In this document: one piece after another, positions 747 through 63,082 of the stretch | Position numbering within the stretch: the stretch's first letter is position 1 | Layout: each line of letters opens with the position of its first letter | Assembly: GCF_011038885.2 (NCBI RefSeq) | Contig: NZ_CP064952.1 | Coordinates: 1,798,001-1,862,000 of the forward strand | DNA length: 64,000 bases | Direction of reading: 5' to 3' | Source of the DNA: Schaalia sp. ZJ405 | GTDB taxonomy: Bacteria; Actinomycetota; Actinomycetes; Actinomycetales; Actinomycetaceae | Notes under the pieces: model-generated | Told to the model about the DNA's origin: nothing | Databases searched by the model: none | The model's input: the letters and a program-made list of their open reading frames with translations, nothing else | Made by a program: the position numbers and the translations under genes

Positions 747-788
747 CTGAGGGGGTTCGCGATCGTCACAGATCGCGAACCCCCTCAG
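747..788. terminator. Bidirectional hairpin between deoR-like gene and mdh
   Basis: A perfect 18-bp inverted repeat (747-764 and 771-788) with a 6-base loop lies between two convergent genes. There is no long T-run on either side, so bidirectional termination is inferred from the stem and its position. The last base of the stem is also the first base of a GTCCTCGT word. Confidence 0.75.
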
Positions 789-795
789 TCCTCGT
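788..795 (+). repeat. GTCCTCGT word, intergenic copy
   Basis: Exact copy directly abutting the deoR/mdh hairpin. See the finding on this word for the full list. Confidence 0.6.
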
Positions 796-844
796 TCATT
801 CACGTCCCCAGGATGACCTGGACAACGTGATGATCAACGGGATG

Positions 845-1834
845 TCACTTGATGAAGCCGAGTTCCTTCACCGTGTCGTACTCTTCCTGGAGAGCCTTGA
901 CGTTGTGCTCAATGCCGGCGCGCGTTGCGTCGGTGATCTCGAGGCCGTCAACGATCTGCCATTCGCCACCGTCGGACGTTGCGGGGAATCCGAAGCACAG
1001 GCCTGCGGGAACGCCGTAGTGCGTGCCGTCAGACATGACACCCGCGGTCACCCACTCGCCTGCCGGTGTGCCGTTGACCCACGACGACATGTGGTCAATG
1101 GCTGCGTTCGCAGCAGAAGCCGCGGATGATGCGCCACGAGCCTCGATGATTGCGGCGCCACGCTTGGCAACGGTCGGGCGGTAGTAGTCGGCCAGCCATG
1201 CCTCGTCAACGAGTTCGGTTGCAGGCTTGCCAGCAACCTTCGCGAAGGAAATGTCGGGGTACTGGTCGGCGGAGTGGTTACCCCACACGATGACGTCTTT
1301 GATATCGGCGTTCGCGGCGCCGGTCTTGTGGGCGAGCTGTGCAACCGCACGGTTGTGATCCAGGCGCATCATCGCGGTGAAACGAGAAGCCGGGACATCC
1401 GGTGCGGCATTCTGGGCAATTGTTGCGTTGGTGTTCGCGGGGTTGCCAACAACGAGGACGCGCACATCGTCAGCAGCACCGTCGTTGATCGCCTTGCCCT
1501 GAGGACCGAAGATACCGGCGTTGGCCTCAAGAAGGTCAGCGCGTTCCATTCCCTGGCGACGCGGCATCGCGCCAACGAGGAATGCGGCATTCGTGCCGTT
1601 GAAAGCCTTGGTTGCGTCGTCGAAAATCTCCACGCCAGCGAGCGTGGGGAACGCACAGTCGTCAAGCTCCATCGCGGTGCCCTCGGCAGCCTTCACGCCC
1701 TGGGGGATCTCAAGGAGGTGGAGTTTAACGGGGACATCGGGACCGAACAGCTGACCGGAAGCGATACGGAACAGCAGGGCGTAGCCAATATTTCCGGCTG
1801 CGCCGGTGACGGTAACGATGCGGGGCTGAGCCAT
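845..1834 (-). CDS. mdh: Malate dehydrogenase
   Basis: Interconverts malate and oxaloacetate with NAD(H) in the cytoplasm. The 329-residue length is that of actinobacterial Mdh. The N-terminus carries the Rossmann loop TGAAGNIGY (about residues 10-18), followed by VVGNPANTN, the substrate arginine/aspartate segment MRLDHNRA (about residues 157-164) and the catalytic histidine in VWGNHS (about 183-188). An AAGGAGT ribosome-binding site precedes the ATG. It is monocistronic, facing the deoR-like gene and followed by the hairpin at 747-788. With sdhCAB at the other end of the window it could supply the reductive route to succinate, which is an inference. Confidence 0.97.
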
Positions 1835-1858
1835 GAGTGAGTACTCCTTCTCATAGGT

Positions 1859-60057: not shown

Positions 60058-62033
60058 TTGTAGCTCCGCTGCTTCAGCTCGATGTTGTTGTAGATCAGAT
60101 CTTCCTTGTGCAGGACCGGCGGCTGATCCTCGCCCGCCCATTCCCAGGCTGCGACGTAGAGGAACTTGTCGTCGTGACGCAGTGCCTCGCCCTCAGGTGT
60201 CTGAGACTCTGCACGGAAGTGACCGCCACAGGACTCTTCGCGGTGCAGGGCATCAATACACATGAGTTCGCCCAGCTCCATGAAGTCGGCGACACGGCCA
60301 GCTTTCTCAAGGGACTGGTTGAGTTCACCGATGGACTTACCGGGAACGCGGACGTTCTGCCAGTACTCCTTGCGGAGCTCACGGATCATGCCGATGGCCT
60401 TCTTCAGGCCCTCTTCGGTACGCTCCATGCCGCAGTATTCCCACATGATGTGGCCAAGTTCCTTGTGGAAGGAATCGACGGAGCGGGAACCGTTGACAGC
60501 CATGAGCCGATCGACACGAGCCTGAGCTGACTGCAACGCCTCCACAACATCCGGCGACGACTCGTCGAGCTTGGGAAGGTTAAAGCAGTGAGCAAGGTAG
60601 TCGTTGATCGTGTTCGGCAAGACGAAGTAGCCGTCCGACAGGCCCTGCATGAGCGCGGAAGCACCCAGGCGGTTAGCGCCGTGATCGGAGAAGTTTGCTT
60701 CGCCGGCAACGTACAGGCCAGGAACGTTGGATTCGAGGTCGTAGTCAACCCACAGGCCACCCATTGTGTAGTGGACAGCCGGGTAGATGCGCATCGGCAC
60801 CTCGTAGGGGTTGTCACCGGTGATGCGTTCATACATGTCGAAGAGGTTGCCGTACTTGGCGGAAACAGCGTCCTTACCCATACGGCCGATCGCTTCGGCG
60901 AAGTCGAGGTAGACACCGCGAGCAACACCGTCAATCTTCGGACCAACGCCGCGGCCCTCGTCGCACATGTTCTTCGCCTGACGCGACGCAATATCGCGAG
61001 GCACCAGGTTACCGAAGGACGGGTAGATGCGTTCGAGGTAGTAGTCGCGGTCCTCTTCGGGGATTTCGCGCGGATCCTTTTCGCAGTCCTCGGCTTTCTT
61101 GGGCACCCAGATGCGACCGTCGTTACGCAGCGACTCCGACATCAGGGTGAGCTTGGACTGCTGATCACCGTGCTGCGGGATGCAGGTCGGGTGAATCTGC
61201 GTGAAGCAGGGGTTACCGAAGTAAGCGCCCTTGCGGTGTGCACGCCAGATCGCGGTTGCGTTGCATCCCATCGCGTTCGTCGACAGGAAGAAGACGTTAC
61301 CGTAGCCGCCGGTGGCGAGCACAACAGCGTCAGCAACGTGGGTTTCGAGCTTACCGGTCGCCATGTCACGCGACACGATGCCTCGGGCGCGACCGTCGGA
61401 CACGATGATCTCGACCATTTCGTGACGCGGATGTTCGGTGACGGTACCGGCCGCAACCTGACGCTCAAGCGCCTGGTAGGCGCCGATGAGGAGCTGCTGA
61501 CCTGTCTGGCCACGCGCGTAGAAGGTACGCGACACCTGGACACCACCGAAGGACCGGTTGTCAAGGAGACCACCGTATTCACGAGCGAAGGGAACACCCT
61601 GGGCAACACACTGGTCGATGATGTTCGCGCTGACCTCAGCCAGGCGGTACACGTTGGTTTCGCGGGCGCGGTAGTCGCCACCCTTGACTGTGTCGTAGAA
61701 CAGGCGGTACACGGAATCGTTGTCGTTGCGGTAGTTCTTCGCAGCGTTAATACCACCCTGCGCAGCAATGGAGTGCGCGCGGCGAGCGGAGTCCTGGTAG
61801 AAGAAAACCTCGACGTTGTAGCCCATTTCACCGAGCGAGGCAGCGGCGGCACCACCGGCGAGGCCAGTGCCGACGATGATCACGCGAAGTTTACGGCGGT
61901 TCGCCGGGTTAACCAGCGCGGCCTTGAACTTGCGTTCTTCCCAGCTCTGGGAGATCGGGACATCGAGAGGAGCCTTCGTGTCGGCGATCTTCTCGCCTTC
62001 GCGATACAGGCCCTTGATTAAGGTGTCAGACAT
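60054..62033 (-). CDS. sdhA: Succinate dehydrogenase/fumarate reductase flavoprotein subunit
   Basis: 659 residues: FAD-binding [20 protein letters not shown], the histidine for covalent FAD in [15 protein letters not shown], substrate residues in [20 protein letters not shown] and [15 protein letters not shown]. The sequence is of the long type that pairs with a single five-helix cytochrome b, used for succinate oxidation or fumarate reduction. In an organism with Pta-AckA and Mdh, a reductive role in succinate formation is plausible but not shown. Confidence 0.97.
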
Positions 62034-62050
62034 TGTGTTTTAGACCTTCC

Positions 62051-62752
62051 TCAGGAAATGAACCCGGCAGCAATGGCGATCGGGGGAGCCATGAACATCA
62101 CGAAGATCACGGCGCCGACGATTCCTGAAAGGACGACCATCAGGGAGCGAGTGGAGGGACGAACCCATCCCAGCGTCTGGAACATCGACCAGAAGCCGTG
62201 CGACACGTGGATGCAGGCGCATCCGACGAACAGCAGGTAAACGATGACCAGGAGCGGCGACTGGAACGAGGCGACCATGCGCTCGTACGGCGTCGCGTCG
62301 ATGGTGAATCCTGTGCGGATTGTTCCGGTGGTGAAGTGAAGGATGTGGAAGACGAAGAGAAGGAAGATGATCACGCCGGACATGCGCATGGTCTGCGCGG
62401 CGTAGGCATCCGTCACCGATTTCTTCACAACGTAGCGGCTACGGCGAGCACGACGCGAACGCTTCCACGTGTAGGCCGCGGCAAATAGGTGAATGACGAG
62501 CATGAGCAGCATCGCAGCGCGGAACACCCAGATGAACCCACCCTTGGGGAAGATCGGGTAGAACGCGTCAACCTTCAGCCATTCGGCGTAGTGATCGTAG
62601 GCTTCTTGCCCCAAGAACATCTTGAGGTTGCCGTAAGCGTGGAAAAGCAGGAAGAGGACGAAGACAAAGCCCGAGATTGCCATCAGCTGCTTAATAAACA
62701 CACTGGTGGTCCAAGCACGGCGCTTCTTCGTCGCGACATTTGTTGTGGCCAT
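62051..62752 (-). CDS. sdhC: Succinate dehydrogenase/fumarate reductase cytochrome b subunit
   Basis: 233 residues with five predicted helices, the single-anchor type (cytochrome b558 family). Histidines in LLFHAYGN, VIHLFAAAY, VFHILHFTTG and CIHVSHGFW are candidates for ligands of two hemes. The start at 62752 gives the usual MATTNVATKKRRAW tail. A GTG at 62779 is possible; neither has a strong ribosome-binding site. First gene of sdhCAB, 17 bases before sdhA. Confidence 0.93.
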   Translation of the reverse strand: MATTNVATKKRRAWTTSVFIKQLMAISGFVFVLFLLFHAYGNLKMFLGQEAYDHYAEWLKVDAFYPIFPKGGFIWVFRAAMLLMLVIHLFAAAYTWKRSRRARRSRYVVKKSVTDAYAAQTMRMSGVIIFLLFVFHILHFTTGTIRTGFTIDATPYERMVASFQSPLLVIVYLLFVGCACIHVSHGFWSMFQTLGWVRPSTRSLMVVLSGIVGAVIFVMFMAPPIAIAAGFIS

Positions 62753-63082
62753 GCCGAAAGGATATCTGCCATCACACACCGAACCAAGGGCCCTTGTTCC
62801 CTTCGGCCCAGAATCCGGTGTTCGCGGCTGAGGTTTTCCTTGTTATTCCGCCAATTTTCTTCGTTTTTTCGGGGGACGAGGACGACTGCGCACCCCCTCA
62901 ATATCGGGTGTGTGCACTCGCGAGAAAAGGAACATTTGTCAATCCATGAGTTGCTAATTTGCTGACACGGCGAAATATCCGTCAAGTCGCACCCAGAGGA
63001 CGGATCGTAGGGATACGCGTGGAGGTACGAGGAACGAACACGAGGGGTATCGCAGCTCAGCCGCCGAAGAATCCCACGATAT
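62753..63082. other. Leader region of the sdh operon
   Basis: 330 bases without a gene. Contains a perfect 12-bp palindrome CAAGGGCCCTTG (62785-62796) close to the sdhC start, a possible operator, and a GTCCTCGT word (reverse) inside a GGGGG...CCCCC loop near 62870-62900. Confidence 0.5.
62876..62883 (-). repeat. GTCCTCGT word (minus strand) in the sdh leader
   Basis: Exact reverse copy in the extended form GTCCTCGTCCCCC when read on the minus strand. Confidence 0.6.

What the first reader, a model, noticed from the sequence alone, without database searches (positions are those of the whole stretch)
788..62883. A polar octamer, GTCCTCGT/ACGAGGAC, recurs between core genes and is nearly missing from the sugar islands
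By eye I find exact copies at 788, 2654, 6983, 18628, 23469, 25307, 26834, 29591, 33016, 34637, 41006 and 47762 (forward) and 1452, 1859, 7395, 16403, 30410, 31382, 46887, 49529, 57916 and 62876 (reverse): 22, against roughly 2-3 expected for this composition. Nine are intergenic, although non-coding DNA is a small fraction. Two abut terminator stems exactly (788, 23469). Longer forms GTCCTCGTCCCC and CGTCCTCGT(T/C)CAT recur. Only one copy lies in 34.97-46.2 kb and none in 49.6-57.8 kb. Intergenic copies are mostly forward before 33 kb and reverse after 46 kb. This pattern is that of a Chi-like, KOPS-like or DNA-uptake-like word.
Basis: partly seen in the sequence, partly recalled or inferred. 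Interest (0 to 1): 0.76.

Follow-up and report, generated by a model that had tools for sequence, protein, structure and literature searches.

The report
Genome-wide self-marking DNA word, with dialects
A short DNA word is scattered about 1,200 times through this actinobacterial genome and changes spelling between related species, much like the 'take up only our own DNA' tags known from two other bacterial families; whether it works that way has still to be tested at the bench.

Summary
The window holds 23 exact GTCCTCGT/ACGAGGAC (2.9 expected); the 2.35-Mb genome holds 1,174 against 137 for the reversed word. The organism belongs to the Schaalia/Pauljensenia group (Actinomycetaceae). In 464 kb sampled, the word is enriched between genes (48 vs 4.45), its 24 one-mismatch neighbours are not clearly so, and in genes it exceeds every synonymous-codon shuffle, in five of six frames separately. 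The core extends to ACGAGGACGA (664 vs 6 reversed, whole genome).

The main new result: congeneric genomes carry equally sharp but differently spelled words. ACGAGGACGA prevails here, ACGAGGGCGG in G014 (1,377 copies vs 52 of the A form), ACGAGGCCGNGG in nine genomes (441-730 copies); sampled stretches of two others show TTGACGAGGC and CCGAGGCC. Close intergenic pairs are mostly hairpin-forming (14 of 18, pooled). There is no replichore strand bias (116:124). E. coli Chi in the same pipeline gives the opposite profile.

Best explanation: a DNA-uptake-sequence system with dialects, working like neisserial DUS, served by ComEA/ComEC and possibly a Tad pilus. Uptake itself is inferred. KOPS is not supported; Chi (for AdnAB) and a genome-wide protein-binding site are the main rivals. 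A 2025 paper names only Neisseriaceae and Pasteurellaceae as having such sequences.

The parts
788..795 (-). word ACGAGGAC (strand given is that of ACGAGGAC); intergenic, 10 nt from a 7-bp hairpin stem
1452..1459 (+). word copy, in gene
1859..1866 (+). word copy, intergenic
2654..2661 (-). word copy, in gene
6983..6990 (-). word copy, in phosphofructokinase gene
7395..7402 (+). word copy, in phosphofructokinase gene
16403..16410 (+). word copy, in the large ORF
18628..18635 (-). word copy, intergenic
23469..23476 (-). word copy, intergenic, GGGG-prefixed form, abuts a 12-bp hairpin stem downstream of the acetate kinase gene
25307..25314 (-). word copy, in NAD synthase gene
26834..26841 (-). 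word copy, in gene
29591..29598 (-). word copy, intergenic, AGGG-prefixed form
30410..30417 (+). word copy, in IMP dehydrogenase gene
31382..31389 (+). word copy, in MerR-family gene
33016..33023 (-). word copy, intergenic under the strictest test too, ATTG-prefixed form
34637..34644 (-). word copy, in gene
41006..41013 (-). word copy, in gene; the only one inside the sugar islands
46887..46894 (+). word copy, intergenic, ATTG-prefixed form
47762..47769 (-). word copy, in gene
49529..49536 (+). word copy, intergenic, ATGA-prefixed form
57916..57923 (+). word copy, in gene
62876..62883 (+). word copy, intergenic, GGGG-prefixed form

Best explanation
ACGAGGACGA (core ACGAGGAC, soft prefix ATTG/GGGG/ATGA) is this species' dialect of a DNA-uptake-sequence-like self-marker used across the Schaalia/Pauljensenia group. 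A surface DNA receptor, perhaps a Tad/Flp-pilus minor pilin or ComEA, binds extracellular duplex DNA that carries the word; the DNA is pulled in and passes through ComEC, so DNA of the same species enters preferentially and recombines. Repeated import of word-bearing fragments keeps and spreads the word wherever sequence tolerates it: intergenic DNA, hairpin pairs, permissive codons. When a lineage's receptor shifts its preference, the whole set is respelled, giving dialects. Shown here: the word, its exactness, its intergenic excess and its excess over synonymous shuffles, lack of strand bias, hairpin pairing in pooled relatives, position turnover, dialects, and the presence of comEA-, comEC- and Tad-type genes. 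Inferred: competence of the organism, receptor identity, specific binding and uptake, and molecular drive.
For: Whole genome: 612+562 copies vs 73+64 reversed; 10-mer ACGAGGACGA 664 vs 6. Intergenic 48 vs 4.45 expected (order 3), the 24 one-mismatch neighbours 0-8 vs 1.1-5.5; strict non-coding DNA (9.2 kb) 5 vs 0.30. In genes 191 vs 44.7 (max 59 of 60 synonymous shuffles); five of six frames exceed every shuffle, the sixth has 2 vs 0.7 (max 3); 10-mer 96 vs 12.2 (max 21). Dialects counted on 35 whole genomes of the genus, A/G/C forms: this genome 664/47/33; G014 52/1377/186; G010 75/64/730; nine of 35 have 441-730 of the C form with reversed controls 2-6. Sampled stretches show further forms: G030 TTGACGAGGC, 22 in genes vs 2.5 in shuffles (max 6); G026 CCGAGGCC, 54 in genes vs 6.6 (Markov only; its ACGAGGCC 27 vs 6.0 in shuffles, max 12). 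Hairpin-orientated pairs are 14 of 18 close intergenic pairs pooled over eight sequence sets (12 if one orthologous site seen in three loci counts once), against 5 of 18 close pairs touching genes. No replichore bias, 116:124. Position turnover: 31 of 219 aligned orthologous comparisons keep the exact word. comEA next to comEC; Tad-type loci. Frye et al. 2013 (PMC3630211; abstract and passages seen) describe the same set of properties for neisserial DUS: dialects, permissive regions, inverted pairs at terminators.
Against: No experiment. ComEC is present in 93 of 98 genomes, including G005 and G032 which lack the word, so machinery does not predict the word. Of the NCBIfam models the ComEC here passes only the N-terminal one; the full ComEC/Rec2 model scores 67.5 against a cut-off of 190, and the whole-length comEA model 94.8 against 152 (its helix-hairpin-helix model passes). 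Of pilus genes only T2SSF was sought genome-wide, and it gave only Tad-like contexts; DprA was not searched. In this genome itself there is no excess of close intergenic pairs (one +-, one -+; 1.6 expected) and hairpin context is weak (mean folding energy -26.6 vs -24.4 for planted controls), strong only in G014 (-33.3 vs -26.3). Spacing is random (CV 1.00). Depletion in atypical genes is not general. Within genes the other ACGAGGNC octamers exceed synonymous shuffles about 2- to 3-fold, so part of the coding excess is a codon-pair effect. High-GC genomes blur the picture: G012 carries all three forms (326/458/293). G005 and G032 have no such word, and G004, G006, G007 and G020 no single clear dialect.
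Confidence: 0.62

Rival explanations
1. Chi-like word: a recombination hotspot read by the AdnAB-type helicase-nuclease during double-strand-break repair, with dialects because the enzyme co-evolves with it.
For: The genome has two neighbouring long open frames (1084 and 1164 aa) with PDDEXK_1 nuclease domains, one with UvrD_C above cut-off and the other just below it; I read them as AdnAB (name by recall). Whether AdnAB responds to Chi was stated as unknown in 2016 (PMC4824097, passages seen). Abundance is Chi-like.
Against: No leading-strand bias (116:124), whereas E. coli Chi gave 42:18 in 200 kb; strong intergenic enrichment (48 vs 4.45), whereas Chi gave 2 vs 1.6; hairpin-orientated pairs in pooled relatives; a core of 10 bp or more; respelling within one genus.
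Confidence: 0.13
2. Binding site of a chromosome-organising or other abundant DNA-binding protein (nucleoid protein, SMC loader, methylase) that needs hundreds of sites.
For: Genome-wide, random spacing, exact core, both strands.
Against: Respelling in lockstep across hundreds of sites and hairpin pairing are described for uptake sequences; I know of no such case for organising proteins (recall). Sites are not kept at the same places.
Confidence: 0.14
3. Dispersed mini-repeat or terminator stem that spreads by transposition or serves transcription termination.
For: Inverted pairs form GC-rich hairpins in G014 and others; two window copies lie at or near stems.
Against: Flanks beyond about 16 bp are not conserved; most copies are single; about 80% lie in genes (191 of 240), in all six frames; orientation relative to tandem genes is mixed (15:10).
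Confidence: 0.05
4. KOPS- or AIMS-like polar word guiding FtsK or replication-terminus functions.
For: Non-palindromic octamer.
Against: No strand bias with dnaA at the start of the contig and skew turning near 1.15 Mb.
Confidence: 0.02
5. By-product of Glu-Asp codon runs and G+C content.
For: The other ACGAGGNC octamers are about 2- to 3-fold over synonymous shuffles in genes; many high-GC relatives are moderately high.
Against: Intergenic enrichment, enrichment in frames that encode no Glu-Asp, and dialects whose differences do not follow G+C.
Confidence: 0.02

Closest known systems
DNA uptake sequence (DUS) of Neisseriaceae and its dialects (Frye et al. 2013, PMC3630211; abstract and passages seen)
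   Same: short non-palindromic word in hundreds to thousands of copies, intergenic and permissive coding sites, inverted pairs forming hairpins, species dialects differing by a few bases around a constant core
   Different: No sequence resemblance (GCCGTCTGAA against ACGAGGACGA); host is an actinobacterium; no ComP or classical type IV pilus identified, only Tad-type genes found; fewer copies; uptake untested
Uptake signal sequence (USS) of Pasteurellaceae
   Same: Abundant short word with a fixed inner core and variants within the family
   Different: Different word; two USS types described there (PMC12616744, passages seen), against at least five spellings here; hosts unrelated
Chi of RecBCD/AddAB
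   Same: Short over-represented non-palindromic word
   Different: E. coli Chi measured here: no intergenic enrichment (2 vs 1.6) and leading-strand bias 42:18; this word shows the opposite
KOPS (FtsK-orienting sequence)
   Same: Octamer-sized, non-palindromic
   Different: KOPS is strongly strand-biased (recalled); this word is not

Membership tests
DNA uptake sequence / uptake signal sequence | short word over-represented genome-wide by hundreds of copies | tested here: met
   1174 vs 137 reversed; 10-mer 664 vs 6
DNA uptake sequence / uptake signal sequence | excess in intergenic DNA and at tolerated coding sites | tested here: met
   48 vs 4.45 intergenic; 191 vs 44.7 synonymous shuffle in genes
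DNA uptake sequence / uptake signal sequence | inverted pairs able to form hairpins | tested here: inconclusive
   met in the pooled set, 14 of 18 close intergenic pairs over eight sequence sets, above all in G014; not demonstrable in this genome alone (one +-, one -+)
DNA uptake sequence / uptake signal sequence | dialects between related species with a constant core | tested here: met
   35 whole genomes, three spellings counted; two further spellings in samples
DNA uptake sequence / uptake signal sequence | competence machinery (pilus, ComEA, ComEC) present | tested here: inconclusive
   comEA- and comEC-type genes adjacent, Tad-type loci present; full-length ComEC/Rec2 model below cut-off; DprA not searched
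DNA uptake sequence / uptake signal sequence | the word raises DNA uptake or transformation | not testable with these tools
   needs a bench assay
DNA uptake sequence / uptake signal sequence | a receptor that binds the word specifically | not testable with these tools
   no receptor identified
Chi | bias towards the leading strand | tested here: not met
   116:124; E. coli Chi 42:18 in the same script
Chi | read by the resident helicase-nuclease | not testable with these tools
   AdnAB-like pair present
KOPS | strong orientation from origin to terminus | tested here: not met
   116:124 by replichore in 464 kb; 612:562 overall

The most novel reading that the evidence does not exclude
A third, independently evolved uptake-sequence system, the first in Actinobacteria and in a Gram-positive lineage, with at least five dialects in one genus-level group (A, G and C spellings of ACGAGGNCG, plus TTGACGAGGC and CCGAGGCC), read by a Tad-pilus or ComEA receptor and acting as a species-level barrier to gene exchange among these actinobacteria.
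Probability: 0.55. Interest if true: 0.92.

Novelty: new variant of a known kind. Interest (0 to 1): 0.82.

Why it matters
Self-DNA recognition in transformation is described for two proteobacterial families only (PMC12616744, 2025; PMC7811141, 2020; passages seen). A convergent system in Actinobacteria would show that such words can arise in other envelopes and with another pilus type, would point to a DNA-binding Tad pilin or ComEA with sequence specificity, and would make dialect-receptor co-evolution testable in a second, well-sampled group. If the function turns out to be Chi-like instead, it would be a Chi for an AdnAB-type enzyme, which a 2016 paper called unknown (PMC4824097, passages seen). 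Either way the dialect word could serve as a marker for tracing gene flow between these species.

Tried and rejected
KOPS or other polar function: rejected on strand counts. Codon-run artefact as a full account: rejected. Site-specific regulation: disfavoured, sites turn over (31 of 219 comparisons identical) and orientation to tandem genes is mixed (15:10). Dialect switching at individual orthologous coding sites was looked for and not shown: among the 42 one-mismatch comparisons the G or C spelling accounts for 7. General depletion in atypical genes: not shown. Regular spacing: none. Reach: in 149 genomes of the order (own and ten family members included) TTGACGAGGNCG mostly has fewer than 40 copies, the highest outside the family being 61 in large genomes; within the family most other genera are low, but some genomes are raised: 2 of 4 in g19 (43 each), 2 of 11 in g23 (96, 49), 3 of 6 in g15 (58-67), 3 of 3 in g63 (29-59). 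In named 20-kb loci Varibaculum shows ACGAGGAC in genes (16 vs 1.1) but not between genes (0 vs 0.1), so I do not count it as a case. Literature: the octamer on either strand gives no paper in the held library; searches for uptake sequences in Actinobacteria, Actinomyces and Schaalia and for comEC in Actinomycetaceae listed no paper on such a system; I read the listings (15 of 92 papers listed, 12 of 13) and passages of PMC6370729, PMC7811141 and PMC12616744 only; subscription journals and preprints are not held. My gene caller is crude: it leaves 17.5% of the E. coli sample as intergenic, more than I would expect (recalled), so intergenic sets contain some genes; the strict non-coding test guards against this, but only 9.2 kb passes it here.
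Full report
What was checked. GTCCTCGT/ACGAGGAC occurs 23 times in the window against 2.94 expected, and 612 + 562 times in the whole 2,345,961-bp genome against 73 + 64 for the reversed word. dnaA lies at the start of the contig, and the GC skew of the samples changes sign near 1.15 Mb.

Sample. A simple gene finder gave 376 genes and 83.1 kb of intergenic DNA.

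The word is sharp. Between genes there are 48 copies against 4.45 expected from an order-3 Markov model, the highest score of the octamers tested, while the 24 one-mismatch neighbours range from 0 to 8 with expectations of 1.1 to 5.5. In DNA outside the called genes and outside every ORF of 60 codons in six frames (9.2 kb) there are 5 copies against 0.30. The intergenic copies share more than the octamer: G follows in 45 of 48 and A after that in 38 of 48; upstream, forms such as ATTG, GGGG or ATGA prevail; beyond about 16 bp nothing is conserved. In genes there are 191 copies; shuffling synonymous codons within each gene 60 times gives 44.7 on average and 59 at most. Five of the six frames exceed every shuffle, including frames without Glu-Asp; the sixth has 2 against 0.7 (maximum 3). 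The 10-mer ACGAGGACGA has 96 against 12.2, maximum 21. The other ACGAGGNC octamers are also 2- to 3-fold above shuffles in genes, so part of the coding excess is a codon-pair effect.

No polarity. In the sampled 464 kb the word lies 116 times on the leading and 124 times on the lagging strand, although 62% of called gene length is leading. Orientation relative to tandem genes is mixed (15:10).

Dialects. Among 98 genomes (this one included) the octamer varies strongly within the genus, from 82 to 1,315 copies. Sampling 100-220 kb from each of twelve congeners showed one reason: several have an equally sharp but differently spelled word. G014 uses ACGAGGGCGG(GGC): 25 intergenic copies against 0.10 expected, 40 in genes against 2.3 in 30 shuffles (maximum 6). 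G015 has ACGAGGGC 26 times between genes against 3.0. G030 uses TTGACGAGGC(G): 22 in genes against 2.5 in shuffles (maximum 6). G026 uses CCGAGGCC: 54 in genes against 6.6 by Markov model; the shuffle was run for its ACGAGGCC, 27 against 6.0 (maximum 12). G003 has TTGACGAGGG, 14 in genes against 1.5 (maximum 3), weak between genes (8 ACGAGGGC vs 1.6). G005 and G032 show none of these. G006, G007 and G012 (67-71% GC) show smaller excesses and mixed forms, as do G004 and G020. Whole-genome counts on all 35 genomes of the genus then gave a matrix (A = ACGAGGACGA, G = ACGAGGGCGG, C = ACGAGGCCGNGG, both strands added): G000 664/47/33; G014 52/1377/186; G013 144/778/62; G017 156/654/58; G015 160/457/74; nine genomes (G009, G010, G011, G019, G022, G023, G025, G028, G034) have 441-730 of C with 48-80 of A and 40-64 of G; G012 has 326/458/293, no clear dialect. 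The reversed controls are below 20 in most of the 105 cells, 44 at most (G013, A form). Strands are balanced (for example 689 + 688 in G014). A generic form, TTGACGAGGNCG, has 37-358 copies in 31 of 35 genomes of the genus, against reversed controls of 0-5; the other four are G005 (11), G021 (13), G029 (28) and G032 (4). Named 20-kb loci agree: A. provencensis has 11 intergenic ACGAGGGC against 0.4, and four loci of the HPA0247/ORNL0103 kind have 24 intergenic ACGAGGCC against 2.6, though those four are near relatives and share some sites.

Hairpin pairs. Over eight sequence sets, 18 pairs of words lie within 60 bp in intergenic DNA; 14 are in the convergent order that forms a hairpin, 1 in the divergent order, 3 in the same direction (three of the 14 are one orthologous site). 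The 18 close pairs that touch genes show no such preference (5, 3, 10). This genome itself contributes one convergent and one divergent pair, with 1.6 pairs expected. In G014 the folding energy around words is well below planted controls (-33.3 over 24 copies vs -26.3; one copy beside N was dropped); in this genome the difference is small (-26.6 over 48 vs -24.4).

Turnover. Of 188 coding copies, 59 could be aligned to relatives in 219 comparisons; the exact word is kept in 31. The sites are interchangeable rather than individually conserved.

Machinery. ComEC matches in 93 of 98 genomes, this one included, also in G005 and G032. Here a 273-aa ComEA-type protein (hydrophobic anchor by eye, helix-hairpin-helix) lies next to a 522-aa ComEC-type protein whose N-terminal model is above cut-off, while the full ComEC/Rec2 model and the whole-length comEA model are not. 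Two loci carry Tad/Flp-type proteins: T2SSF and TadE in one, T2SSF, DUF4244 (Flp-like by my reading) and a Tad domain in the other. In the actinobacterium Micrococcus luteus, Flp/Tad pili are required for transformation (review PMC6370729, passages seen). The double-strand-break enzyme looks AdnAB-like.

Control. E. coli K-12 Chi in 200 kb, same pipeline: 2 intergenic copies against 1.6, 58 in genes against 31.6, 42 leading to 18 lagging. This is the opposite profile.

Interpretation. Genome-wide abundance, exact core with soft flanks, intergenic excess, use of all reading frames, hairpin pairs in relatives, turnover and, above all, dialects around a constant CGAGG core are the properties described for neisserial DUS (PMC3630211, abstract and passages seen). 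[quoted passage not shown] I therefore conclude that the word most likely works like a DUS. Membership in DUS/USS in the strict sense requires an uptake effect and a receptor, which cannot be tested here. The chief doubts are that ComEC is equally present in relatives without the word, that my paper searches listed no report of competence in these bacteria, and that a Chi for an AdnAB-type enzyme or another genome-wide binding protein is not excluded.

Noticed in passing
L031-L050 and window (464 kb of G000), intergenic: A second intergenic repeat, unrelated in sequence to the word: CAAAAACGTCAC and AAAAACGTCACA 7 copies each vs 0.03 expected, with GTCACAGTGA 7 vs 0.26.
   Followed up: no
L243-L249 (G005): This congener lacks the CGAGG word but has another sharp intergenic word, CCTTGTGTGC (12 vs 0.11); possibly an unrelated repeat, possibly a replaced self-marker.
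   Followed up: no
L143, L173-L182 (G003) and L133, L153-L162 (G006): Other intergenic repeats: CATACCCCTA and GGTATGTGCA (8 copies each) in G003; CCATCCCACA, ACAACTCCCC and ACTCCCCCCA (10 copies each) in G006.
   Followed up: no
window 17107-18512: Two adjacent ORFs, one with an HTH_28 domain and one with rve integrase domains, which look like an IS3-type transposase pair (domains, IS family by recall).
   Followed up: no
window 11146-17004: A single ORF of 1952 codons that carries two word copies; not annotated here.
   Followed up: no
G000:C1:1716000-1726000 (L233, L259, L260): A Tad-type pilus locus lies a few kb from the AdnAB-like pair.
   Followed up: no
L094, L095, L099, L108: Varibaculum loci (GC 52%; L094 is labelled Tissierella but groups here by my reading) have 16 ACGAGGAC in genes against 1.1 expected but none between genes; TTGACGAGGNCG is raised in some genomes of other genera of the family.
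   Followed up: partly
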